In this document: in pieces, positions 35,872-46,759 of the stretch | Layout: every line of letters begins with the position of its first letter | Numbering within the stretch: the first letter of the stretch is position 1 | Assembly: GCF_017464355.1 (NCBI RefSeq) | Contig: NZ_JAFUAG010000045.1 | Location: 176,319 to 240,318, forward strand | DNA length: 64,000 bases | DNA from: Ruminococcus sp. | Lineage (GTDB): Bacteria > Bacillota > Clostridia > Oscillospirales > Ruminococcaceae | Direction of reading: 5' to 3' | Notes under the pieces: model-generated | The model's input: the letters and a program-made list of their open reading frames with translations, nothing else | Databases searched by the model: none | What the model was told of the DNA's origin: nothing | Position numbers and translations under genes: made by a program

Positions 35872-36720
35872 ATGGATAAAATACTTCTTGATATGCACAC
35901 CCACAGCAGCCATTCCCCCGATGCGGAGGACAGCGCTGCTGCTATGTGCGAAAGAGCCGCAGAGCTCGGCCTGACAGCCTATGCGCTGACAGATCACTGC
36001 GATGTCAATTTCTGGGAGAAAGCCCCCACCCCCGAAACTATCGATGCGATGATGTACGGCTCAGGCAGCTATGCTCTTGCAAGCATAGCCGAGCAGACAC
36101 AGCTTCGTGATAAATACAGCGGGCGCCTTGACCTCATTATCGGCATCGAGCTTGGCCAGCCCCTGCAGAATATGGAAAAAGCCGAGCTTATAACCGATGA
36201 CCCCCGCCTTGACTTCATCATCGGTTCACACCACATGAATGCAGGGGTAGATGATTTCTACTACCTTGACTACAGCAAAATGTCTCCCGCAGAACTTGAC
36301 CGCCTCCTTGAGAATTGCTTTACCCAGACCCTTGAGATGTGCCGCTGGGGCAGGTTCGATGTGCTGGGTCATCTTACTTATCCCCTCAGGTATATCTGCG
36401 GAGAATACGGCATTCCCGTGGATACAGACAGATATCACGATATCATCTGTGAAATTTTTAGTACACTTATCTCAAAGGGCAAGGGTATCGAGATAAACAC
36501 TTCAGGCCTCCGCCAGAAGTACGGCATGACCTTCCCCACCTTTGAACTTGTAAAGCTGTACCGTCAGCTTGGGGGCGAGATACTCACCATCGGTTCAGAT
36601 GCCCACCGTGTTCCCGACCTTGGCAAGGGCATAGCTGAGGGTATCGAGCTGGCAAAAGCCGCAGGCTTCGACAAGGTCGCATATTTCAAGAAGCATGAGC
36701 CCCATTTCCTAAAGCTGTGA
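35872..36720 (+). CDS. PHP-domain histidinol-phosphatase-like protein
   Basis: A 282-residue PHP phosphoesterase of the HisK/HisJ type, which hydrolyses histidinol phosphate in histidine biosynthesis. Metal ligands are visible in DMHTHSSHS (residues 7-15), LTDHCD (about 41-46), GIELGQ, IGSHH and the C-terminal GSDAH. AAAGGTGAT precedes the ATG. No other his genes are near, so a different sugar- or nucleotide-phosphate substrate is possible. Its 3' end overlaps the sigG 3' part by 12 bp in convergent orientation. Confidence 0.85.
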   Translation: MDKILLDMHTHSSHSPDAEDSAAAMCERAAELGLTAYALTDHCDVNFWEKAPTPETIDAMMYGSGSYALASIAEQTQLRDKYSGRLDLIIGIELGQPLQNMEKAELITDDPRLDFIIGSHHMNAGVDDFYYLDYSKMSPAELDRLLENCFTQTLEMCRWGRFDVLGHLTYPLRYICGEYGIPVDTDRYHDIICEIFSTLISKGKGIEINTSGLRQKYGMTFPTFELVKLYRQLGGEILTIGSDAHRVPDLGKGIAEGIELAKAAGFDKVAYFKKHEPHFLKL

Positions 36721-37197
36721 CTTTATCTTGTCCAGCGCACTTTTCTCCAGACGGGAAACCTGTGCCTGGGAAATGCCTATCTCCTTTGCCACCTCCATCT
36801 GGGTGCGTCCCTTGTAAAAACGTAGGAAAAGTATGTTCTTTTCCCTGCTTTTCAGACTTTTCAGCGCTTCTTTAAGGGTCAGTTCCTCCAGCCAGCTTTT
36901 GTCATCATTGCTGTCGCAGATCTGATCCACGATGTAAAGCGCATCACCGCCCTCGGTGTAAACAGGCTCATAAATTGAAACAGGGTCGCTCACCGACTCC
37001 AGCGCCGTTACGATATCTGCCCGCTTTTCTCCCGTCAGCTCTGCGATCTCGTCAATGCTGGGTTCACGCTGGTTTTCGGCGATGAAAGCTTCCTTTGCCT
37101 GCATGGCTTTGTATGCCAGATCCCGCATGGAACGGCTGACTCTCATCGGGCGGAAATCTCTCATATAGCGTTTTATTTCTCCCAATATCATTGGCAC
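36709..37197 (-). pseudogene. sigG: sigG 3' part (SigG residues ~95-256), separated from its 5' part
   Basis: C-terminal 160 residues of the forespore sigma factor SigG: regions 2.3/2.4 (MILGEIKRYMRDFRPMRVSRSMR), region 3 and region 4 with the helix-turn-helix (TQMEVAKEIGISQAQVSRLEK). No ribosome binding site precedes GTG 37197 or ATG 37191, and the sequence upstream becomes unrelated at the GGCAC core (37193-37197). The 5' part lies 9.1 kb away at 46239-46586 on the same strand. There are no internal stops or frameshifts, so this is an interrupted rather than decayed gene. Joining at the core restores ...TYAVP|MILGE... in frame. Confidence 0.93.
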
Positions 37198-37216
37198 AGC
37201 ATTGGGCGGTCGAAAA
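37181..37216. other. Left attachment site (hybrid of sigG and element half-sites)
   Basis: The sigG half-site (37181-37192) joins core GGCAC (37193-37197) and then the element arm containing ACAGC, TTGGGC and GTCGAAAA (37196-37216). Likely crossover is at the GG of 37193-37194. Confidence 0.85.
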
Positions 37217-37249
37217 CGGACAGCAGATACCTTATCTGCTGTCCGTTTT
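37213..37249. terminator. Perfect 17 bp hairpin at the left end of the element
   Basis: AAAACGGACAGCAGATA, a 3-nt loop, then the exact complement ending in TTTT. It has A and T tracts on both sides so it can terminate in either direction. It would stop element transcripts from entering the sigG 3' part. Confidence 0.8.
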
Positions 37250-37306
37250 GTTATATATGTCTATTACATTGCTTTGGCAGATGATAAATTTGTTCAAACA
37301 GATAGC

Positions 37307-37335
37307 TTGACAAACTGTGTATATAGTGCTATAAT
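37307..37335 (+). promoter_or_regulatory. Consensus sigma-A promoter for the NAD-salvage operon
   Basis: TTGACA (37307-37312), 17 bp, TATAAT (37330-37335), a perfect match, about 56 bp before the first gene. Confidence 0.88.
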
Positions 37336-37390
37336 GATAACAACAAAGAGATAATAACTAAAGGTTACAAACAGAAAAGGACGGATAGTT

Positions 37391-37948
37391 ATGAATATAC
37401 TGATAGCCATTGACCTCCAGAAGGATTTTACCACAGGTGTCCTCGGCAATGCCGAATGTGATGCTGCTGCCGCAAAAGCCGCAGAACGCATAAAGGCATA
37501 CCGTACTGAAAACCCCGATACTCCCGTGGTGTTTACCCTTGACACCCATACCGAGAATTATATTGAGACCCAGGAAGGCAGAAATCTTCCTATAGTACAC
37601 TGTGTCCGCGGAACTGAGGGCTGGCAGCTCGATGAGCGCATAGCAGCCGTTAAGGCAGAGGGTGATATCACGGTGGAAAAGCCGTCTTTCGGTTCGGCGG
37701 ATCTTCCTGTAGTTATCTCAAAGCTTGTATGGCGTGATAAGATCGAGGAGATAGAAGAGATCGAGTTCATCGGTGTATGCACAGATATCTGTGTTATCAG
37801 CAACGCTATGATAGTCAAATCAGTTTTTCCCGAGGTACCCATTAAGATAAACGCCAAATGCTGCGCAGGTGTTACACCCGAGTCTCACGAAAATGCACTC
37901 AGCGCCATGGCGGCCTGCCAGATGAAGATCGAAAGGAATGAGGTATAA
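37391..37948 (+). CDS. Cysteine hydrolase, nicotinamidase/isochorismatase-like
   Basis: A 185-residue isochorismatase-fold hydrolase. The catalytic triad candidates are Asp in IDLQKDF (residue 8), a central Lys (in EKPSFGSA, near residue 97) and Cys in GVCTDICV (near residue 136), as in nicotinamidase. It would convert nicotinamide to nicotinate and ammonia, but isochorismatase-like proteins with other amide substrates look similar. The genomic link to the Prs-like and NAMPT-like genes supports a pyridine role. Its stop overlaps the next ATG (TAATG). Confidence 0.8.
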   Translation: MNILIAIDLQKDFTTGVLGNAECDAAAAKAAERIKAYRTENPDTPVVFTLDTHTENYIETQEGRNLPIVHCVRGTEGWQLDERIAAVKAEGDITVEKPSFGSADLPVVISKLVWRDKIEEIEEIEFIGVCTDICVISNAMIVKSVFPEVPIKINAKCCAGVTPESHENALSAMAACQMKIERNEV

Positions 37949-38763
37949 TGCTTAGCTACCGTTTTGACGGGGGAGAGTTCATCTCCCCGAACATCGATAA
38001 CTACCCCGACGGCACCATGAAGATAGACCTCGCCCCCGCCGATACCTGCCAAAAGGCAGATATCCGCTGGCTTTACGAGAACGAGCTTGAACAGATGCAG
38101 CTTTTCTTCATCATGGGCAGCCTGAAAGACCGCTTCCCGAAAGCTGAGTTCACCCTGTTCCTGCCCTATCTTCCCAATGCCCGCATGGACAGAGTACACG
38201 CTGATACTGAGGTCTTCACTTTAAAGTATTTTGCCCGTTTCATAAATTCCATGGGTTTTGATAAGGTTTATGTGCTGGACGTTCACTCTTCCGTAGGCGC
38301 TGCCCTTATCGACCGCTGCGTTAATATCTCCCCTGAAAAATATATCCGTCAGGCCATGGAAGCTGCAGGCTTCTCCTTTGAGAACGACTACCTGTTCTTC
38401 CCTGATGAGGGTTCAATGAAGCGCTATTCCTCCATGTTTAATGGAAACCATGTCGGCTTCGGCATAAAGAAGCGTGACTGGTCCACAGGCAGGATAATGG
38501 GTCTTGAAGTTGAGGGCGACGACCCCACAGGAAAAAATGTATTCATCATTGACGATATATGTGCCTATGGCGGAACTGTCTTTTACTCCGCAAATAAGCT
38601 CAAAGAGCTTGGCTGTGCTGATATAAACGTATATTTCAGCCACTGCGAGAACTCCATAGCAAAGGGCAGGCTGTTTGGATGCGGAATGATAAAGAATATC
38701 TACACCACAAATTCCATATGCACCCTGCCCGAAAACGATATCCTCAGGTTAATCGAACTATGA
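37948..38763 (+). CDS. Ribose-phosphate pyrophosphokinase-like protein (Prs-like)
   Basis: A 271-residue protein of the PRPP-synthetase fold, about 40 residues shorter than housekeeping Prs and clearly divergent. PYLPNARMDR (near residue 72) corresponds to the ATP-binding PYxxxARQDR, and the PRPP/ribose phosphate loop is VFIIDDICAYGGTVF (near residues 195-209). Between cysteine hydrolase and NAMPT-like genes it probably makes the pyrophosphorylated ribose donor for the latter. It could be a true PRPP synthetase or an ADP-ribose pyrophosphate synthetase as in the phage NARP1 pathway; sequence alone does not decide. Confidence 0.8.
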   Translation: MLSYRFDGGEFISPNIDNYPDGTMKIDLAPADTCQKADIRWLYENELEQMQLFFIMGSLKDRFPKAEFTLFLPYLPNARMDRVHADTEVFTLKYFARFINSMGFDKVYVLDVHSSVGAALIDRCVNISPEKYIRQAMEAAGFSFENDYLFFPDEGSMKRYSSMFNGNHVGFGIKKRDWSTGRIMGLEVEGDDPTGKNVFIIDDICAYGGTVFYSANKLKELGCADINVYFSHCENSIAKGRLFGCGMIKNIYTTNSICTLPENDILRLIEL

Positions 38764-38784
38764 TGTAAAGAAAGGAAGATCATT

Positions 38785-40305
38785 ATGAAAGGCATAAATG
38801 CCGTACTTATGTGCGATTTCTATAAAATAGTCCACAGGGATATGATAAATCAGGCCATGACAAAGTCCATGTCCTACTATACCCCCAGAATGAGCCGAGT
38901 AAGGCGCTGGGATAAGGTGGTAATGTTCGGCCTGCAGATGTTTTGCAAGACCTGGCTCATTGACTATTTCAACGAGAATTTCTTTGATGTTCCCGAGGAA
39001 GAGGTAGTGGCCGACTATCAGCGTGTGCTGGATAATTCTTTCGGAAAGGGCATATATAATACAAGCTCTATCACCGAGCTTCACAGGCTGGGCTACCTGC
39101 CTATAGAGATCATCGCCCTGCCCGAGGGCACCCTTGTACCTATCCATGTTCCCATGTTCGGCATAACTAATACCCACCCCGATTTTGCATGGCTGCCCCA
39201 GGCGCTGGAAAGCCTTATCTCTGCCGAGATGTGGTACCCCCAGATAACAGCTACCGTGGGCAAGACCTACCGCGATATCGTCAACAAGTATTATGATATC
39301 ACCTGCGATGATGATATCCCCCGAGCAAAGGCGCTGGGCTCTTTTGATTTCCGCGGCGACCAGGGGCTTGATGCCGCACTGAAAGCGGCTGCGGGCTGGT
39401 GTATGTCTTTCCTGAACACTGCCACCGTTCCCGCCATACCCTACCTTGAAAAAATGTTCGGCGCAGACTGCACAAAAGAACCTGTTGCCTACGGCGCTGT
39501 CAGCACAGAGCATTTCGTTATGTGCTCCAACTTTGCTGTTGACGGTGATGAAGAAAGCTTCCTTCGCAGAATGCTCACAGAGCTTTATCCCAACACCAGC
39601 TTTTCTGCTGTTCTTGATTCCTACGATTACTGGAACGTCATCGATAATATCCTGCCTAAGCTCCACGATGAGATAATGGCACACAACGGCTGTATGCTCA
39701 TGCGAGGTGACTCGGGTGACTGCGTTGAGGTCGTGACCAAGACCGTTTTCAAGCTTTGGGAGCAGTTCGGCGGAACTGTCAACAGCAAGGGCTATAAGGT
39801 CCTTGACCCCCACGTCAAGGCCATCTACGGCGACAGCATAACCGTTCAGCGCTGCGAGCAGATCTACGAGATACTCATGAACAACGGCTTTGCCTGCTCG
39901 AATGTTACGCTGGGTGTAGGTTCGTTCTCCATGCACTGCATTGAGGAGACCGAGGAGCTGACCCTCACCGCTGATGACGGTCAGAAGTTCGTCGGCAGAC
40001 CCACTGTGCTCAAGCCCTTCACCCGTGATACCTTCTCCAGCTGCATAAAGGCCTGCTATGCCGAGATAGACGGCAAGGAATACCCCATTTTCAAAGACCC
40101 AAAGGACGGCGGCTTCAAGAAGAGCCAGAAAGGCCTCTGCTATGTTTACCGCAATGAGGACGGTGAGCTTGCCTACAAGGACGGCTATGTGGGCAGCAAT
40201 ATTCCCGAGGGCAACCTCCTTGAAACTGTTTTCAGGGACGGTAAGCTTGTGAAAGAATACACCCTCAGTGACATAAGAAACAGGCTGCACGACAGCGCAT
40301 TCTGA
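38785..40305 (+). CDS. nadV: Nicotinamide phosphoribosyltransferase-like enzyme (NAMPT/NadV)
   Basis: A 506-residue enzyme of the NAMPT type, which joins nicotinamide with PRPP to give NMN. By eye, VSTEHF matches the active-site His region, LDSYDYWN the phosphate/ribose site, and RGDSGD the PRPP-binding RPDSGN. The Asp that contacts the amide in human NAMPT (in GTDTVAG) appears as Ala here (NTATVPA), so substrate preference may differ. ATG 38785 has AAAGGAAG upstream and follows the Prs-like gene by 21 bp. A terminator closes the operon. Confidence 0.85.
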   Translation: MKGINAVLMCDFYKIVHRDMINQAMTKSMSYYTPRMSRVRRWDKVVMFGLQMFCKTWLIDYFNENFFDVPEEEVVADYQRVLDNSFGKGIYNTSSITELHRLGYLPIEIIALPEGTLVPIHVPMFGITNTHPDFAWLPQALESLISAEMWYPQITATVGKTYRDIVNKYYDITCDDDIPRAKALGSFDFRGDQGLDAALKAAAGWCMSFLNTATVPAIPYLEKMFGADCTKEPVAYGAVSTEHFVMCSNFAVDGDEESFLRRMLTELYPNTSFSAVLDSYDYWNVIDNILPKLHDEIMAHNGCMLMRGDSGDCVEVVTKTVFKLWEQFGGTVNSKGYKVLDPHVKAIYGDSITVQRCEQIYEILMNNGFACSNVTLGVGSFSMHCIEETEELTLTADDGQKFVGRPTVLKPFTRDTFSSCIKACYAEIDGKEYPIFKDPKDGGFKKSQKGLCYVYRNEDGELAYKDGYVGSNIPEGNLLETVFRDGKLVKEYTLSDIRNRLHDSAF

Positions 40306-40316
40306 TAATATCCCCC

Positions 40317-40355
40317 ACAGTGTCTGCCAATGAAAGTGCAGGCACTGTATTTTTG
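40317..40355 (+). terminator. Terminator after the NAD-salvage operon
   Basis: ACAGTGTCTGC...GCAGGCACTGT stem with one T/G mismatch, followed by ATTTTTG. Confidence 0.85.
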
Positions 40356-40384
40356 TTGACAGCCTTGTCACTATGTGGTATAAT
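40356..40384 (+). promoter_or_regulatory. Consensus sigma-A promoter for the element's unknown gene
   Basis: TTGACA (40356-40361), 17 bp, TATAAT (40379-40384). Confidence 0.85.
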
Positions 40385-40420
40385 AATTACATCATTTCCT
40401 GATAATACGGAGGTATCTCA

Positions 40421-40879
40421 ATGAAGATAAACAGCAATGAAGAACTGCTAGAGGTCATAGGCGAGGGGTTTCTCTGGAATATAGTCAGCGAATATATCGC
40501 CCATGATATCGAACATATCAAGGAAGCCCTCAGACAGCTGGGCTATATCGATCAGGCAGATGTTGACAAGCTTACCTTTGCGGAAGACCGTGACAGTGAT
40601 GAATTCAACATCATCTCATTCAGTGAGAACGGCCATACCCTTACCGCCGAATATGAAATGCCCACAGGTATACTTACCTGCAATGAAGACAAAAGTGTGT
40701 GCTTCCACATGACCGCCTGCTGTACGGGAACGATCGAGGTACCCGACTATTCTTCCTACGACTGGGGCGCCCTTGATTTTGAAAACATGAACCGACCTCA
40801 GATACTTTCCTATAGTCATCTTGCAAAGCTGAAAAGCCTCAGCTATGAATACGTTGAAGCCGACGACCTCAATGCATAA
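40421..40879 (+). CDS. Element-borne hypothetical protein
   Basis: A 152-residue acidic, soluble protein with no signal peptide and no family I recognise. An N-terminal helical part (to about residue 45) is followed by a predicted beta-rich part (HTLTAEYEMPTGILTC, VCFHMTACCTGTIEVP) and a C-terminal helix. It has a private consensus promoter, a CGGAGG ribosome binding site and its own terminator, so it is probably well expressed. The location inside the sigG element makes it a candidate for an element-specific function, but none can be assigned. Confidence 0.65.
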   Translation: MKINSNEELLEVIGEGFLWNIVSEYIAHDIEHIKEALRQLGYIDQADVDKLTFAEDRDSDEFNIISFSENGHTLTAEYEMPTGILTCNEDKSVCFHMTACCTGTIEVPDYSSYDWGALDFENMNRPQILSYSHLAKLKSLSYEYVEADDLNA

Positions 40880-40886
40880 AAATAAT

Positions 40887-40929
40887 AACTGCCCCGAAAC
40901 GGAAGTTTTTTCAATCGGGGCAGTTTTTC
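40887..40929. terminator. Bidirectional terminator between the unknown gene and the MFS gene
   Basis: AACTGCCCCGA...TCGGGGCAGTT stem with an A run on the left and a T run on the right, shared by convergent genes. Confidence 0.88.
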
Positions 40930-42101
40930 TATTTTATCTCCGCAGACTTTCTCAACGCAAATTTCAGTGTGAACAGCAGCCCGCAGAAAAGCACGGCGCA
41001 TACAGGCAGCACTGTGATAGCCTTGCCATATCCCGCCTTTTCCACCAGCCCGCCGAAAAATGCGTTAAAGCCGATATCAAAGAAAGTTGCTATACTCAGT
41101 ATGGTCCCCGTGGCAGTACCCGCCTCGGCAGGGTCGAAGAATTTTCCTATGAGCATGACCAGCATAGGGTATATTATAGAAAACGCCACACCCGAAATAC
41201 CGATGAGCAGCATACCTCTTTTACCCATGGAGATGCCTGCAGTGTAAAGCACCGCACCTGCCGCCGACCAGATCAGCAGGCTCCTGAAAATGCCTATCCT
41301 GTCGATAAGGGGCGCAAATATCAGCCTGCCAACGGTTATCCCGCCAAAGAACAATGACAGGTAAAATGCAGACTTCTGCACAGTGAACCCCAGATGTTCG
41401 CTGCCATAGGAGGTCAGCCAGTTCATCAGCCCATGCTCCGCTATGAAATAGCAGCCGCAGATAAGTATCAGTATGATACTTGCAGGGCTTTTCAGGACTT
41501 TTCTCAGCCCGCTGCCATTCTTCTCTTTCTTCTCCGGGTCGGGAAGCTTCAGCCTCATCAGCAGCACAAAGCAAATTACCGCCAGCCCCAGGAGTATACC
41601 GTTGGCAGCGTGCCAGTATTTCAGGTCATGAGCAAAGCGCCCGCCCACATTCTGTGAAAGGGTTATGCCTATGCCCTGCAGAAAGTTGAATATGCTCACA
41701 AGCATGGCAGGCGAGGCGAACAGCAGTGGAGTTATGATATTCACCGAGGTGGATATCATCGTTGAACCTCCCATGGAAAATATCATTGCCGCCAGCAGAA
41801 GGCAATAGTTCTCGGTGAATACATAAGAAGCCAGCGCCGCTGCCCATAGTATCAGCACACCGCCTATAAATCTTTTCCTGGGCAGCCTGTCCGAAAGATA
41901 GCCGCCCACCGAGAGAAACAGCAGATTTCCCACATAGCTTATCATTATTATCCGTCCCGCCTGGGGTTCCGTCAGCGAGAACGTATTGCGGAACTGCGGC
42001 AGAAAAACTCCCCTCAGCGCATCTGAGGCCGCAGTTATGGTCATTATCAGCCCGCAGAATACCATGGCAGTCAGGTGGGCTTTCTTCTTCATACTATCCA
42101 T
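40929..42101 (-). CDS. Major facilitator superfamily transporter
   Basis: A 390-residue protein with twelve predicted membrane helices. The MFS motif between helices 2 and 3 is GGYLSDRLPRKRF (near residues 67-79). It starts 1 bp after the beta-mannosidase gene ends, so both lie in one minus-strand operon; a manno-oligosaccharide or mannoside substrate is therefore likely but inferred. It ends at a bidirectional terminator. Confidence 0.88.
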   Translation of the reverse strand: MDSMKKKAHLTAMVFCGLIMTITAASDALRGVFLPQFRNTFSLTEPQAGRIIMISYVGNLLFLSVGGYLSDRLPRKRFIGGVLILWAAALASYVFTENYCLLLAAMIFSMGGSTMISTSVNIITPLLFASPAMLVSIFNFLQGIGITLSQNVGGRFAHDLKYWHAANGILLGLAVICFVLLMRLKLPDPEKKEKNGSGLRKVLKSPASIILILICGCYFIAEHGLMNWLTSYGSEHLGFTVQKSAFYLSLFFGGITVGRLIFAPLIDRIGIFRSLLIWSAAGAVLYTAGISMGKRGMLLIGISGVAFSIIYPMLVMLIGKFFDPAEAGTATGTILSIATFFDIGFNAFFGGLVEKAGYGKAITVLPVCAVLFCGLLFTLKFALRKSAEIK

Positions 42102-42102
42102 G

Positions 42103-44538
42103 TCAGTAGTTCTGTATCCTGAGCCCCGCCTTAAGCTTTTCTGCGGTCATGCCCTCGGGCAGAGCGTTCTTCTCCACCATGACACAGACTTCCTCCTCCC
42201 CGTGTATATCGAACCAGTTATCCGAGAATGCGCAGTCATTTTCTTCAAGAGAAAGGCAAACGCTTTTGGCAAAGTTTTCAGCTTTCAGTCTGATCGTGAA
42301 ACTGTCCGTATTATCGTACACTTCCGCTGTTATCCCACCGGGCAGGAACTCAAAGGCCTTTGGCCGAACGAACAGCGTAGTTCCTCCGCTTATGACCTCG
42401 CCGTTTTTTATAAGCTTGTATTCCAGATACTTTGTGCGCTTGTCCTCACGGCCTGCAAGCTCAGCCGAGTAGTCCGTCATGCACATCTTTTTGGCGGACA
42501 TAGCCTTGACCACCCATCTGCATTCACTCATGCAGATGACCCTGCCGTCATTTCCCCTGAGTGTTTCTATAATGGTCAGTTCTTCATCTTCAAGGGTGTC
42601 ATTGCTGACATAGAGTGCCGGCTTCATGGGTTCGCTGTCATCACAGCTTATCAGTATGGGCGCATAGAATTTTCTTGCGTAATAATGCAAAGCCTTCCAC
42701 CGCCCGAAGTAGTCTATGCTCGACCAGGATATAACAGGATTTGAGTCGTTCACCTGCCAGTAAGCCGAGCCCATGCAGCGCCCTCTTGCCCTCCTCATAT
42801 GCTCCACGTTCGAGCGTATGCAATCCGCCTGAACTATCTGGGAACAGTATATGAGCCTTTGAAGATCGTAAGGGTAATTTACCATCTGCGCCAGGTAGTA
42901 CATGACCTTTTCGTTGCCCTGGGTGCATTTCTGGTGAGCCTGCATAACATTGCCGCACAGGTCAAAGTCGCCCTTGTCCTCATTGGCAAAATAGCGGCAG
43001 GTCTTTATATCAGGCAGACTTTCAAAGCCGTACTCCGAGCAGAAGCGGTAATGGTACTGCCTGAAAGCTTCTATGGGCTTGAAGTTGTGCCATACGTCCC
43101 AGTAATGCATATCTCCTGCGTGGTTCGATGAGGGGTCTTCAAACTTTCCTCCCGAGGAAGGCGATGAAGGCCAGTAGAAAGTTTCCGGGTCATATTCTTT
43201 CAGCATGGTCGGGATAATGTCCTCAAACAAACGCAGATAATCAGCCTTGCACTCCTTGTCATCGGGCCAGCCCCAGCCCACCCACGCAGACTCTATCTCA
43301 TTGTTGCCGCACCACATACCCAGCGATGCATGGTTCCTGAGCCTTATTATGTTGTCACGGAATTCTTCCCTTACAGTGGCTTCAAATCCTTCCGTCAGCA
43401 GATATGCCGAGCAGGCGAACATAAAGTCCTGCCATACGATGAAGCCGTTTTCATCGCACCAGTCGTAAAAATACTCATCGGGATAATACCCGCCGCCCCA
43501 TACTCTTATAAAATTGTAGTTGGCAGCTTTGCAGTCCTCCAGAAGTTTAACTGTGCGTTCTTTTGTACAGCGCGTAACTATCTGGTCTTCGGGGATATAG
43601 TTTGCGCCCATGGCAAATATCTTCACACCGTTGTTTATAAAGCAGAACTCCTCGCCCCACTCGTCCTTGTCACGGGATATGGTCAGTGTCCGCAGGCCTA
43701 TGCGCCTTGTGTGGGTATCTACGGTTTTCCCCCCGCAGATAAGCTCCACCTTGCAATCATACAATGGCTGTTCTCCAAGACCTGTTACCCACCACAACTT
43801 TGGTCCTTCAATGACTATCTCAGCCCTGCCCTCATTCAGCAGAGCAGTCTGTACCCTGCCTTCGGGGGAGGTAACTGTCAGCCTGACCTCTGCCTTTTCT
43901 TCGCTGAAAATCTCTATATCCGCTTTGCAGCAGACGGTCACTTTCCCGCCTTCATGCTTCTGGGTGTAATATACGTTGTTTATCCTGCCGCCGTCGTAAT
44001 AACATAGGCTGACGCTTCTCCAAATGCCCATGTCAGGCAACTTGGGACCCCAGTCCCAGCCGAACATACAGTGGGCTTTTCTCAGATGAGGGTACCCTGC
44101 CATGCAATGCTCAACTCCTGTCAGTGGACGTTCAGTCTGCTTTTTCGTTATGTACTCATTAGGCGAAAGCAGCTTTACGCTGAGGATATTGTCTTCATCT
44201 TTCAGTATGCCCTCAACATCGTATTCATAAATGCGGTGCATATTGTCCGTCATCCCGAGGAGCCTGCCGTTCAGCCGCACCTCCGAAAGGGTGTCTATCC
44301 CATCGAACCTCAGCACGTTCTTTTCATGGCTGTCCTTTTCGGGAGCGTCAAAGTGCTTTTCAAAGGTGTAGTCCATGTCGCATATCCCCGTGGAGATATA
44401 CTCGTTTTCACGGTAATAGGGGTCGGGTATCATGTTGTTTTCTATGAGTGTTTTGTATACCGAGCATGGCACATCGGCAATGTAGGTCTTGCCATTATAT
44501 TCCATTACCCAGCTTTTATCAAGGGATATTTTTTTCAT
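42103..44538 (-). CDS. Beta-mannosidase, glycoside hydrolase family 2
   Basis: An 811-residue GH2 exo-enzyme that removes beta-1,4-linked mannose from the non-reducing end of manno-oligosaccharides. The order is an N-terminal jelly roll, an immunoglobulin-like domain and a TIM barrel. The acid/base Glu lies in WCGNNEIESAW, the nucleophile Glu in FCSEYGFES, and FGWDWGPKLPDMGIW is typical of beta-mannosidases. ATG 44538 with AAAGGAAG 8 bp upstream is the start; the open frame continues to 44715 only through non-coding sequence and the repeat. No signal peptide, so cytoplasmic. Works downstream of the GH113-like mannanase. Confidence 0.9.
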   Translation of the reverse strand: MKKISLDKSWVMEYNGKTYIADVPCSVYKTLIENNMIPDPYYRENEYISTGICDMDYTFEKHFDAPEKDSHEKNVLRFDGIDTLSEVRLNGRLLGMTDNMHRIYEYDVEGILKDEDNILSVKLLSPNEYITKKQTERPLTGVEHCMAGYPHLRKAHCMFGWDWGPKLPDMGIWRSVSLCYYDGGRINNVYYTQKHEGGKVTVCCKADIEIFSEEKAEVRLTVTSPEGRVQTALLNEGRAEIVIEGPKLWWVTGLGEQPLYDCKVELICGGKTVDTHTRRIGLRTLTISRDKDEWGEEFCFINNGVKIFAMGANYIPEDQIVTRCTKERTVKLLEDCKAANYNFIRVWGGGYYPDEYFYDWCDENGFIVWQDFMFACSAYLLTEGFEATVREEFRDNIIRLRNHASLGMWCGNNEIESAWVGWGWPDDKECKADYLRLFEDIIPTMLKEYDPETFYWPSSPSSGGKFEDPSSNHAGDMHYWDVWHNFKPIEAFRQYHYRFCSEYGFESLPDIKTCRYFANEDKGDFDLCGNVMQAHQKCTQGNEKVMYYLAQMVNYPYDLQRLIYCSQIVQADCIRSNVEHMRRARGRCMGSAYWQVNDSNPVISWSSIDYFGRWKALHYYARKFYAPILISCDDSEPMKPALYVSNDTLEDEELTIIETLRGNDGRVICMSECRWVVKAMSAKKMCMTDYSAELAGREDKRTKYLEYKLIKNGEVISGGTTLFVRPKAFEFLPGGITAEVYDNTDSFTIRLKAENFAKSVCLSLEENDCAFSDNWFDIHGEEEVCVMVEKNALPEGMTAEKLKAGLRIQNY

Positions 44539-44635
44539 ACAGATACTTCCTTTCGGCGGATACTTTAAGTCATTATAACACCCAAAATCGAAGCCGTCAA
44601 TAGTTGTATACGTTATCAAAAAATTAAATTTCTGA

Positions 44636-44734
44636 ATCCCAATTTGGCTGTGTATTGTTTCCCCCGCCGAAGGCGGGGGAAACAATACGAAAAAAACATT
44701 CTGTATCATCAGCAATACACTTCAAAATTGGGAG
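44636..44734. repeat. MITE-like element, full copy with target duplication
   Basis: 99 bp with terminal inverted repeats (TCCCAATTT / AAATTGGGA) and an internal TTTCCCCCGCCGAAGGCGGGGGAAA hairpin-forming block (44659-44682). It is flanked by an 8 bp direct repeat ATTTCTGA (44628-44635 and 44735-44742), which looks like a target-site duplication. It lies between the GH2 start and the recombinase unit. Copies at 50078-50177 and, shortened, at 17456-17513. Confidence 0.85.
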
Positions 44735-44786
44735 ATTTCTGATTATTGTTTTACACTGCTGCCCATAATATCCCAGAGGTGATACT

Positions 44787-44921
44787 ATGCTAAAAATAAA
44801 CAAGACCATGACACCCGACGGCACCCTTTTTACTGATTACCGTGATAAGGGCAACAAAAGGCTTACACAGCTTTTATCAGATATAACAGCCCGTATCCGT
44901 GAAAGGGAAGAACTGTCATGA
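44787..44921 (+). CDS. 44-residue protein translationally coupled to the recombinase
   Basis: A short basic frame with an AGAGGTGAT ribosome binding site and ATG 44787. Residues 1-20 include KINKTMTPDGTLFTDYRD, then a charged helix (SDITARIREREELS). Its stop overlaps the recombinase start (TCATGA), so the two are translated together. I recognise no family. Candidates are a recombination accessory or directionality factor, which is inference from coupling alone. Confidence 0.55.
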   Translation: MLKINKTMTPDGTLFTDYRDKGNKRLTQLLSDITARIREREELS

Positions 44922-46276
44922 AGCGCAAGGCTGCCCTCTATATCCGTGTTTCTACCGATGCCCAGTTTGAAGAGGGCTATTCCGTCGATGCCCAGAAAGA
45001 AAAGCTCGCCCAGTTCTGCAAGCTGAAAGATATAGAGGACTATGAATTCTACATCGACGGCGGCTGGTCGGGCAGCAACATACAGCGCCCCGAGATAAAG
45101 CGCCTTATCGACGATATCCTTGCAGACAGGATAAATATGGTAGTGGTCTATAAGCTTGACAGACTATCCCGTTCCCAGAAAGATACCGTCTATCTTCTGG
45201 AAGATGTTTTTATCCCACATAACTGCGCTTTCATCTCCCTGAATGAGAACTTTGATACCTCCACTCCCTATGGCAAGGCCATGATCGGCATACTATCCGT
45301 CTTTGCCCAGCTTGAAAGGGAAAATATCCGTGAACGTACCCGCATGGGTATGTACGAGAGAGTGCGCTCGGGTCTGTGGATGGGTGGGGGACGGGTACCC
45401 TTCGGCTATGACTACGACAAGGAGAAAAACACCCTTGTCCCAAATGAAAAAGCCGAACAGGTCAGGCAGATATATGCTTTGTACCTACAGGGCTACTCCA
45501 CCACACAGCTTGCCGCCATGTTCGATGTTTCGGGGGATCAGCATATCTCAGCTATCCTTGACAGAGAAACATACCTCGGAAGGATAAAGTTCCGCGGCGA
45601 GACCATTGAGGCCGCCCATGAGCCCATAATAGACGAAGATACCTGGCTGCGTGTTCAGCAGGAAAGGGCAAGGCGTTCCCGCGGGGGCAGCAGGTCTTCC
45701 GCCTACCTGCTGACAGGTCTGCTGGTCTGCGGTAAGTGCGGTGCAAAAATGCGCTACCAGAAGTGGGGCAGCGGCTTGAAGATCTACTGCTACTCACAGC
45801 AGAAAAGCAAGCCCTCCCTCATAAAAGACCCCGAATGTGACAACGTGAGATACGATGCCTTTGAAGTGGAAAAAGCCGTTACAGAAGACCTGTTCAGCAA
45901 GACTGCCTCCGTTACGGCAGAAAGCAGGTCATCGGCTGATGTAGTGAGCGCCATGGAGCTGCTGAAAAACAAGTACCGCCATACAGCAGATAAACTGAAA
46001 AGGCTGTATGATCTCTACGCAGCAGACGGCAATGAGCTGCTGCTGGAAACTATTGAGGAAAACAAAAAGCAGCTGTCAGAAATAAATGCAGCCATAGAAA
46101 ACGAAGAAAAGTCAAAGCAGGCCGCAGGGGAGCTCAGGCGAAAAAGAGAGGTAATGACGAACCTGTGCAGCCTGTGGGACAGCATGACCCTCAGCGAAAA
46201 GAAAAAAGCCCTCCGAACCTGTATCGAAAGGGTCATACTCACCGATGAAGATATAGATATAGTATATACCCTCTAG
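44918..46276 (+). CDS. Large serine recombinase of the sigG element
   Basis: A 452-residue large serine recombinase. The resolvase domain has the catalytic Ser in YIRVSTDAQ (residue 12) plus the conserved KLDRLSRS and ERENIRERT motifs. Then come the recombinase domain (RVPFGYDYD), a zinc-ribbon (CGKCGAKMRY, with CYSQ...C following) and a C-terminal coiled coil (about 345-420). This is the layout of SpoIVCA, which excises skin from sigK in Bacillus. Its stop codon is 1 bp from the right att arm. It is expected to catalyse excision and integration between the two sigG att sites. It overlaps the extended sigG 5' frame by 38 bp, convergently. Confidence 0.94.
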   Translation: MKRKAALYIRVSTDAQFEEGYSVDAQKEKLAQFCKLKDIEDYEFYIDGGWSGSNIQRPEIKRLIDDILADRINMVVVYKLDRLSRSQKDTVYLLEDVFIPHNCAFISLNENFDTSTPYGKAMIGILSVFAQLERENIRERTRMGMYERVRSGLWMGGGRVPFGYDYDKEKNTLVPNEKAEQVRQIYALYLQGYSTTQLAAMFDVSGDQHISAILDRETYLGRIKFRGETIEAAHEPIIDEDTWLRVQQERARRSRGGSRSSAYLLTGLLVCGKCGAKMRYQKWGSGLKIYCYSQQKSKPSLIKDPECDNVRYDAFEVEKAVTEDLFSKTASVTAESRSSADVVSAMELLKNKYRHTADKLKRLYDLYAADGNELLLETIEENKKQLSEINAAIENEEKSKQAAGELRRKREVMTNLCSLWDSMTLSEKKKALRTCIERVILTDEDIDIVYTL

Positions 46277-46586
46277 CTTTTCGACTGCCCAACGCTGTCG
46301 GCACTGCATAGGTAGAAAACCTGACGTTGAGCCCCACATCAAAATTGTCAATGGCCTTTATAAGACCAACTACTCCGACCTGAAAAAGGTCATCGGGGCT
46401 TTCCTTGCCCTGGGAGTACCTCTGCAGAACGCTCAGCACCAGCCGCAGGTTCCCGTTTATCAGTTCTTCCCTGGCTTTTTTATCCCCACCCCTTGTCTTT
46501 TTCAGAAGCTCCTGCTTCTCTTCCTCTGAGAGAACCTTCAGCGAGCAGGTGTTCACGCCGCTTATCTCGACTTTGTTGTACTGCAT
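46239..46586 (-). pseudogene. sigG: sigG 5' part (SigG residues 1-96 plus 19 foreign residues)
   Basis: ATG 46586 with AAAGGAG 8 bp upstream starts the canonical SigG N-terminus (KVEISGVNTCSLKVLS), then region 1.2 (AREELINGNLRLV) and region 2.1/2.2 (DLFQVGVVGLIKAIDNFD). SigG identity stops after FSTYAVP (residue 96) exactly at the GGCAC core; 19 unrelated residues follow to a stop at 46239. The missing remainder is at 36709-37197. Fusing both gives about 256 residues, against 260 for Bacillus SigG. Alone it lacks promoter-recognition regions 2.4 and 4 and should be inactive. Confidence 0.93.
46278..46310. other. Right attachment site (hybrid of element and sigG half-sites)
   Basis: The element arm (46278-46298: TTTTCGAC, GCCCAA, GCTGT blocks), C, then core GGCAC (46300-46304) and sigG sequence. 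Likely crossover is at GG 46300-46301. Confidence 0.85.
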
Positions 46587-46759
46587 TATATTTCTCCTTT
46601 TATCAGAAAACGGATACGGTATAGGTATATATTTCCCCTGAAAGCTTCCGTTATTCAAGATCCTCGTTCACAGATAATCTGTATAATATTATATAAAACT
46701 TCATATTCGTGAAAAATAATCACGTTTTTGGACAACCGGTAAATATTCGGTCGAAACTA
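46587..46759. promoter_or_regulatory. sigG upstream region with inverted repeat
   Basis: Contains the sigG ribosome binding site and an inverted repeat CGTGA-7-TCACG (46708-46724). No clear sigma-A promoter points into sigG; forespore SigF/SigG-type sites are too loose for me to call. Confidence 0.35.

What the first reader, a model, noticed from the sequence alone, without database searches (positions are those of the whole stretch)
36709..46586. Forespore sigma factor gene sigG is split by a 9.1 kb excisable (skin-like) element
Seen: SigG residues 1-96 end at 46300-46304, and residues 97-256 begin at 37193-37197, on the same strand, both free of stops or frameshifts. Joining at GGCAC restores FSTYAVP|MILGEI in frame. 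The intervening 9,107 bp ends in a large serine recombinase gene. Known: the sigK gene of Bacillus subtilis and Clostridioides difficile is interrupted by skin, which is excised by a serine recombinase. I know of no described sigG counterpart, so this looks like a new developmental or mobile element site.
Basis: partly seen in the sequence, partly recalled or inferred. Interest (0 to 1): 0.96.

Follow-up and report, generated by a model that had tools for sequence, protein, structure and literature searches.

The report
Split forespore sigma gene, rejoinable by recombinase
In many gut and rumen Clostridia the gene for the spore-forming switch protein SigG is cut in two at the same place and kept intact as two pieces, with a DNA-rejoining enzyme in the same genome, which suggests that these bacteria rebuild the gene by rearranging their own chromosome when they make spores.

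Summary
SigG codons 1-95 (46586-46302) and 96-256 (37194-36709) are intact, on one strand, and join in frame over GGCAC across 9,107 bp; no other SigG was found in the held genome. It is no assembly error: 7 of 29 genomes of the genus are split the same way, and exactly those 7 carry the recombinase. Of 77 searched genomes behind recombinase loci, 71 show sigG only in pieces (57 both, 14 one). Elements run from 2.5 to 90 kb; in other genomes the pieces are dispersed or on opposite strands, yet att-type arms stand at both cuts in one register in 24 of the 24 pairs read. Both halves are under strong purifying selection, spore genes are kept, and some recombinase operons have a SigF-like promoter. 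Best explanation: a skin-like element (or dispersed half-sites) rejoined by a serine recombinase at sporulation, probably in the forespore. Excision was not observed and no joined copy of a split species was found. If it happens in the forespore, the rearranged chromosome is the inherited one, unlike the known elements I read of, which act in the mother cell.

The parts
46302..46586 (-). sigG N-half, codons 1-95 (start ATG at 46586)
   Evidence: constraint
36709..37194 (-). sigG C-half, codons 96-256 and stop
37193..37197 (.). core GGCAC at the C-half junction; inferred crossover dinucleotide GG 37193-37194
46300..46304 (.). core GGCAC at the N-half junction; inferred crossover dinucleotide GG 46300-46301
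37198..37216 (.). attP-like arm next to the C-half (AGCATTGGGCGGTCGAAAA)
   Evidence: inverted repeat of the other arm, 22 of 30 positions around the core
46277..46299 (.). attP-like arm next to the N-half (CTTTTCGACTGCCCAACGCTGTC)
44918..46276 (+). large serine recombinase, 452 aa (Resolvase PF00239, Recombinase PF07508, Zn ribbon PF13408)
   Evidence: relatives
44787..44921 (+). small ORF, 44 aa, overlapping the recombinase start; candidate recombination directionality factor (position only)
   Evidence: no Pfam family; a small ORF directly upstream in 50 of 82 recombinase records by a simple rule, at least three of them apparent chance ORFs
44739..44771 (+). SigF-like promoter candidate CTGATTA-N15-GCCCATAATAT before the small ORF; weak on its own, same place in 6 related elements
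46627..46658 (-). SigF-like promoter candidate of sigG, TTGAATA-N14-GGGAAATATAT
   Evidence: the matrix was fitted on 27 genus sequences including this one
37391..37948 (+). cargo: isochorismatase/nicotinamidase-like
37948..38763 (+). cargo: ribose-phosphate pyrophosphokinase-like (below NCBIfam cut-off)
38785..40305 (+). cargo: NAMPT/NAPRT-like phosphoribosyltransferase
40421..40879 (+). cargo: hypothetical, 152 aa
   Evidence: no Pfam family
40929..42101 (-). cargo: MFS transporter
42103..44538 (-). cargo: GH2 beta-mannosidase-like

Best explanation
In growing cells sigG is held in two pieces. Between them (here) lies a 9.1 kb element whose ends are attL and attR of a serine integrase. At sporulation SigF in the forespore turns on both the sigG N-half and the small-ORF/recombinase operon; recombinase plus a directionality factor (candidate: the 44-aa protein) recombine attL with attR at the CC dinucleotide of codon Pro96. 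The element leaves as a circle, sigG becomes whole and SigG is made. In relatives with dispersed halves the same reaction would excise a large segment, resolve the chromosome or invert a segment. Because the forespore chromosome is the inherited one, the element must be put back (integrase alone, attP x attB) or be lost; useful cargo would select for retention. Shown: the split, its conservation and constraint, att-type arms, recombinase co-occurrence, kept spore genes, promoter enrichment. Inferred: that excision happens, when and in which cell, the directionality factor, and reintegration.
For: Split in 7 of 29 genus genomes and pieces only in 71 of 77 genomes reached through recombinase loci; recombinase (E<=1e-60) only in the 7 split genus genomes. 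Arms in the same inverted register in 24 of 24 N/C pairs read (27 tried), dispersed ones included; matched arm identity 0.51 against 0.42 (sd 0.07) for mismatched pairs. Median dN/dS 0.057 (N) and 0.044 (C) over 21 pairs of split species, 0.087 and 0.096 over 36 pairs of intact ones (synonymous sites near saturation). SigG and recombinase distances correlate, r=0.64, p=0.0005, 26 genomes. SASP in 6 of 7 split genus genomes and 60 of 65 others, GPR in 7 of 7. SigF-like sites upstream of the recombinase: score >=13 in 8 of 71 against 4 of 692 other genes, >=16 in 5 of 71 (about three independent, two pairs being near-duplicates) against 0 of 692, MWU p=3e-8.
Against: No excised junction or circle was seen. 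Two protein searches gave no full-length SigG matching both halves of a known split species at >=98% (only the best 120 of about 8,000 scored per query were seen). The window's own SigF-like site before the recombinase is weak (score 2.3; 6.8% of background windows as good), and most Agathobaculum-type loci have none above background. In the genomes of L049, L066, L072, L076-L078, L080, L082-L084, L096, L098, L113 and L115 the recombinase is not beside a half within the fetched DNA, and in L074 it lies outside the C-half side, so it would have to act from elsewhere. R. albus is not known to me to sporulate, and Galperin 2012 (passages) lists R. albus 7 among Spo0A-positive non-spore-formers lacking spoIIR and others. 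SASP is also found in most unsplit genus genomes (16 of 22), so it does not tell split from intact. Exceptions: G442 intact SigG with recombinase; G458 and G483 intact plus pieces of different sequence; G441 and G444 no SigG; G431 intact sigG. G023 is nested in the flanking-gene tree but outside the split genomes in the sigG trees.
Confidence: 0.7

Rival explanations
1. Reversible phase variation: recombination happens at low rate in growing cells, independent of development, so that only the minority with joined sigG can complete sporulation (bet hedging).
For: Same anatomy; many split genomes lack a SigF-like site above background before the recombinase; near relatives with and without the element exist.
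Against: SigF-like promoter enrichment upstream of the recombinase points to developmental timing; no joined copy seen in the protein lists.
Confidence: 0.17
2. Spent mobile element: an integrase that targets a conserved sigG/sigF motif has inserted, the hosts no longer sporulate, and the halves are relics.
For: R. albus 7 listed as a non-spore-former; a recombinase near-identical over the residues shown sits in sigG in L070 and in a SigF-like gene in L068, so mobility is plain.
Against: Halves, arms, recombinase, SASP and GPR are kept over large distances; dN/dS about 0.05 in the genus.
Confidence: 0.08
3. SigG works as two separately made polypeptides.
For: Halves are dispersed in many genomes; several C-halves have ATG right before Pro96.
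Against: The cut lies inside the conserved FSTYAVPMI stretch; I see no ribosome-binding site before the C-halves (by eye); the bases beyond each cut are conserved as recombinase arms.
Confidence: 0.03
4. Assembly artefact.
For: None beyond draft assembly.
Against: Eight further genomes hold both halves in this order within one contig.
Confidence: 0.005

Closest known systems
skin element of sigK (Bacillus subtilis, Clostridioides difficile)
   Same: Sporulation sigma gene interrupted; serine recombinase with PF00239/PF07508/PF13408 domains as in CD1231; in C. difficile a directionality factor is needed for excision, not for integration (PMC5025042, passages).
   Different: Target is the forespore sigma factor, not the mother-cell one; no prophage genes seen among the cargo here; halves dispersed in many relatives; excision in the forespore would be inherited.
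gin element in gerE of Bacillus cereus ATCC10987
   Same: Non-prophage intervening element with a serine recombinase expressed at sporulation (PMC5595907, passages).
   Different: gerE acts in the mother cell; reported for one strain in what I read, not an old widespread split.
SPbeta in spsM, yin in yabG, vfbin
   Same: Sporulation genes interrupted by elements (PMC4191935 and PMC10747680: search listing with start of abstract only; vfbin named in a passage of PMC5595907).
   Different: SPbeta and yin are prophage or prophage-like; none is in sigG in anything I saw.

Membership tests
sporulation gene-intervening (skin-type) elements | interrupts a sporulation gene that is restored in frame by joining direct repeats | tested here: met
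sporulation gene-intervening (skin-type) elements | encodes its own site-specific recombinase | tested here: met
sporulation gene-intervening (skin-type) elements | excision during sporulation | not testable with these tools
   needs cultures or reads
sporulation gene-intervening (skin-type) elements | excision confined to the terminal mother cell | not testable with these tools
   target gene and SigF-like promoters argue for the forespore instead
sporulation gene-intervening (skin-type) elements | directionality factor in the element | tested here: inconclusive
   small ORF upstream of the recombinase in 50 of 82 records by a simple rule; function unknown
sporulation gene-intervening (skin-type) elements | prophage-like gene content (skin, SPbeta; not gin) | tested here: not met
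   window cargo is NAD-related, transport and GH2 genes
large serine integrases | Resolvase + Recombinase + zinc ribbon domains | tested here: met
   among the nearest solved chains are TP901-1 and A118 integrases
SigG | joined protein is SigG rather than SigF/SigB | tested here: met
   C-half ranks SigG models first; joined protein 66-85% identical to 20 whole genus SigG

The most novel reading that the evidence does not exclude
A programmed and reversible rearrangement of the germline chromosome: each forespore joins its sigG half-sites (by excision, chromosome resolution or inversion), and the germinating cell undoes it. Unlike the known sporulation elements, which act in the doomed mother cell, the rearranged DNA is inherited, and valuable cargo (NAD genes, tRNA genes) would be what keeps the element from being lost.
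Probability: 0.35. Interest if true: 0.97.

Novelty: new variant of a known kind. Interest (0 to 1): 0.92.

Why it matters
It would move sporulation gene rearrangement from a few mother-cell genes to the forespore master regulator in many gut Clostridia, including human commensals. Such genomes would look sigG-deficient to annotation and to sporulation predictors. It makes a clear question testable: how does a bacterium rearrange the chromosome that it passes on? It also offers a family of serine integrases with a known natural target.

Tried and rejected
Looked for a joined sigG of a known split species in the large protein collection: none with both halves >=98% among the 240 proteins listed; several listed proteins look chimeric at the conserved junction (an Agathobaculum-like N-half with C-parts 67-79% like other species), so joined copies there are unsafe evidence. 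Looked for an excised circle among phage and viral records: phage record MT839977 (5.9 kb) carries the recombinase and a SigG C-half, and IMG/VR contig L192 a SigG N-half; I read both as bacterial fragments misfiled as viral. L193, the other IMG/VR hit, shows no SigG half in the 8.3 kb fetched. G458 and G483 looked like joined plus split in one genome, but the copies differ (79.6% over 496 nt; 72.7% over 88 nt): paralogue or contamination. attP arms near the NAD genes of G002 or sigG of G023: none at 15 of 21 matches. Recombinase upstreams were compared first with random windows, then with other genes' upstreams, the fairer control. Nine literature searches showed no report of an interrupted sigG in their listings; Galperin 2022 is not held.
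Full report
WHAT IS THERE. SigG codons 1-95 and 96-256 lie 9,107 bp apart on the minus strand, each intact, sharing GGCAC; joined they give a 256-aa SigG with stop. The element ends next to GGCAC are inverted repeats of each other (22 of 30 positions, centred between the two Gs), as in a serine integrase attP; the crossover bases would be GG on the plus strand, CC of Pro96 in the gene. The element holds nicotinamidase-like, PRPP-synthetase-like and NAMPT/NAPRT-like genes, a hypothetical gene, an MFS transporter, a GH2 mannosidase-like gene, a 44-aa ORF and a 452-aa serine recombinase. No other SigG was found in the held genome; SigF (behind SpoIIAB), SigE (behind SpoIIGA) and a SigK-like factor are whole (SpoIIAB and SpoIIGA are my reading of the ORFs).

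GENUS. Of 29 genomes, 20 have SigG in one piece, 7 are split (G000, G003, G004, G005, G013, G018, G025), one gives a partial match (G019) and one none (G026). At E<=1e-60 the recombinase is in exactly the 7 split genomes. Five concatenated flanking genes of 13 genomes (two of them missing in some) reject monophyly of the split genomes (AU p=8e-5) and place intact G002 among them (weakly, 43-69% on the inner branches) and intact G023 beside G000 (96%). The sigG trees agree for G002 (0.97 and 79%) but put G023 outside the split genomes. So at least one precise loss, in G002, is the simplest reading, G023 being open; repeated gain cannot be excluded. G002 has the flanks of the window with an uninterrupted sigG. 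Both lack the recombinase but keep the three NAD-related genes, in G002 1.05 Mb away, in G023 beside sigG. Halves of the 7 split genomes have median dN/dS of 0.057 (N) and 0.044 (C) over 21 pairs, against 0.087 and 0.096 over 36 pairs of intact ones; synonymous differences are near saturation, so the ratio is rough but the constraint is plain.

BEYOND THE GENUS. One scan of GTDB genomes with the recombinase confirmed 114 relatives and kept 80 loci; 60 of 80 carry a SigG half in the fetched DNA. Of the 74 loci outside the genus I sent the genomes of 72 to a SigG profile search (L064 and L099 not sent); 71 were searched (L111 not held). With the 6 genus loci that makes 77 genomes. Both halves and no whole copy: 57. 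One half only: 14. Whole plus pieces: 2 (G458, G483). Whole sigG: 2 (G442; G431, where the recombinase sits at a SigF-like C-half followed by a SpoVAA-like ORF, both by my reading). No SigG: 2 (G441, G444). The cut-offs differed (1e-20, 1e-26, 1e-29), so some missing N-halves may only be below them; whole matches that start at residue 12-39 were taken as SigF, SigA or other sigma factors by start and length, not tested singly. In an even draw of 393 Clostridia genomes at least 90% complete, at least 8 (own included) are split: I rechecked only the 15 with unusually weak best matches, of which 7 are split (N-half also seen in 5), 2 cut by contig ends and 6 without a SigG-type match. The split is thus a minority state, but in four families of that draw.

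ARRANGEMENTS. Same strand, normal order: 2.5 kb in L061, 15 kb in G433, 25 kb in G434, 90 kb in [Ruminococcus] faecis G424. Agathobaculum massiliense (one 3.2 Mb contig): same strand, 112 kb apart in permuted order, so joining would release a 112-kb circle carrying sigG. Hominifimenecus (G435): opposite strands 26 kb apart, so joining would be an inversion. In many others the halves lie on separate contigs. I tried 27 N/C pairs; 24 were read by the script, and in all 24 the arms align in the same inverted register (-2) with CC on both sides; G435, one of the three not read, shows the same kind of arms by eye. In about fourteen genomes the recombinase is not beside a half in the fetched DNA, which I cannot explain beyond later rearrangement. 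The L061 element carries tRNA-Thr and tRNA-Trp genes. SigG and recombinase distances correlate over 26 genomes (Mantel r=0.64, p=0.0005; r=0.61 without the R. albus group), so the pair has largely travelled together.

REGULATION. A SigF-like site (TGNATA-N14/15-GGnAATAAT) was fitted upstream of sigG in 27 genus sequences (fitted, so not independent). With that matrix the recombinase operon of 6 R. albus-group elements has its best site at one place, 46-48 bp before the small ORF: strong in 2 (0.4% of background windows as good), moderate in 2 (1.5-2.1%), weak in 2 including the window (7-8%). In 71 distant loci the scores exceed those of 692 other genes (median 1.9 against -2.0, MWU p=2.9e-8; >=16 in 5 against 0). 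L059/L063 and L068/L070 are near-duplicates, so the five are about three independent cases, and the Agathobaculum-type loci mostly show nothing. That the site is SigF-type rests on my recollection of the Bacillus consensus.

SPORULATION. SASP is found in 6 of 7 split genus genomes (not G025, 86% complete), 16 of 22 others of the genus, and 60 of 65 further genomes with split or half sigG (in 7 of these in two pieces); GPR in 7 of 7 split genus genomes, in G025 only as a fragment. Against: R. albus 7 is listed as a non-spore-former lacking several spore genes.

MECHANISM AND ALTERNATIVES. The evidence supports a recombinase-rejoined sigG; the developmental, forespore version is the best reading because both gene and, in some lineages, enzyme look SigF-controlled, but stochastic switching is a live rival. 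In C. difficile skin, recombinase plus directionality factor excise and recombinase alone integrates (PMC5025042, passages); if that holds here, the split state is the default and can be re-formed after germination. Nothing here shows excision.

NOVELTY. Nine searches of the held open library listed no report of an interrupted sigG; subscription papers and preprints are not covered. The kind (gene-intervening element with serine recombinase) is known; the target, the spread, the dispersed halves and the germline consequence are new to me.

Noticed in passing
L215:1060-5296 (G482); also G421, G474, G475, G477, G480, G491: In Agathobaculum-type genomes an alpha/beta SASP gene, itself a forespore gene, is found in two pieces (about residues 1-28 and 21-59), 4-23 kb apart where on one contig, with a different 557-aa serine recombinase just before the C-piece in L215: both pieces in 7 of 65 genomes.
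   Followed up: partly
L095:11882-21079; L087, L099, L102, L117; proteins P0006, P0007: A second interruption of sigG near its 3' end (after EIHISQ or EIHLS) in Agathobaculum/Butyricicoccus; only in L095 was the tail found, 9.2 kb on, with a small resolvase-like gene between.
   Followed up: partly
L068:7014-9099, L221: A recombinase near-identical, over the residues shown, to that of [R.] faecis (L070) sits before a SigF-like C-half, so this element type may also split sigF.
   Followed up: partly
37391-40305: Nicotinamidase-like, PRPP-synthetase-like and NAMPT-like trio in all 7 split genus genomes; resembles phage NAD-restoring (NARP) gene pairs that I recall; kept in G002 and G023, which lack the element.
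   Followed up: partly
L061:9512-9701: tRNA-Thr and tRNA-Trp genes inside a 2.5 kb sigG element.
   Followed up: no
phage record MT839977 (L194); IMG/VR L192: Apparent bacterial sigG-element fragments filed as phage or viral sequences.
   Followed up: yes
37217-37245: An inverted repeat (hairpin, by eye) beside the C-half arm; similar ones seem present at this place in L040 and L041.
   Followed up: no
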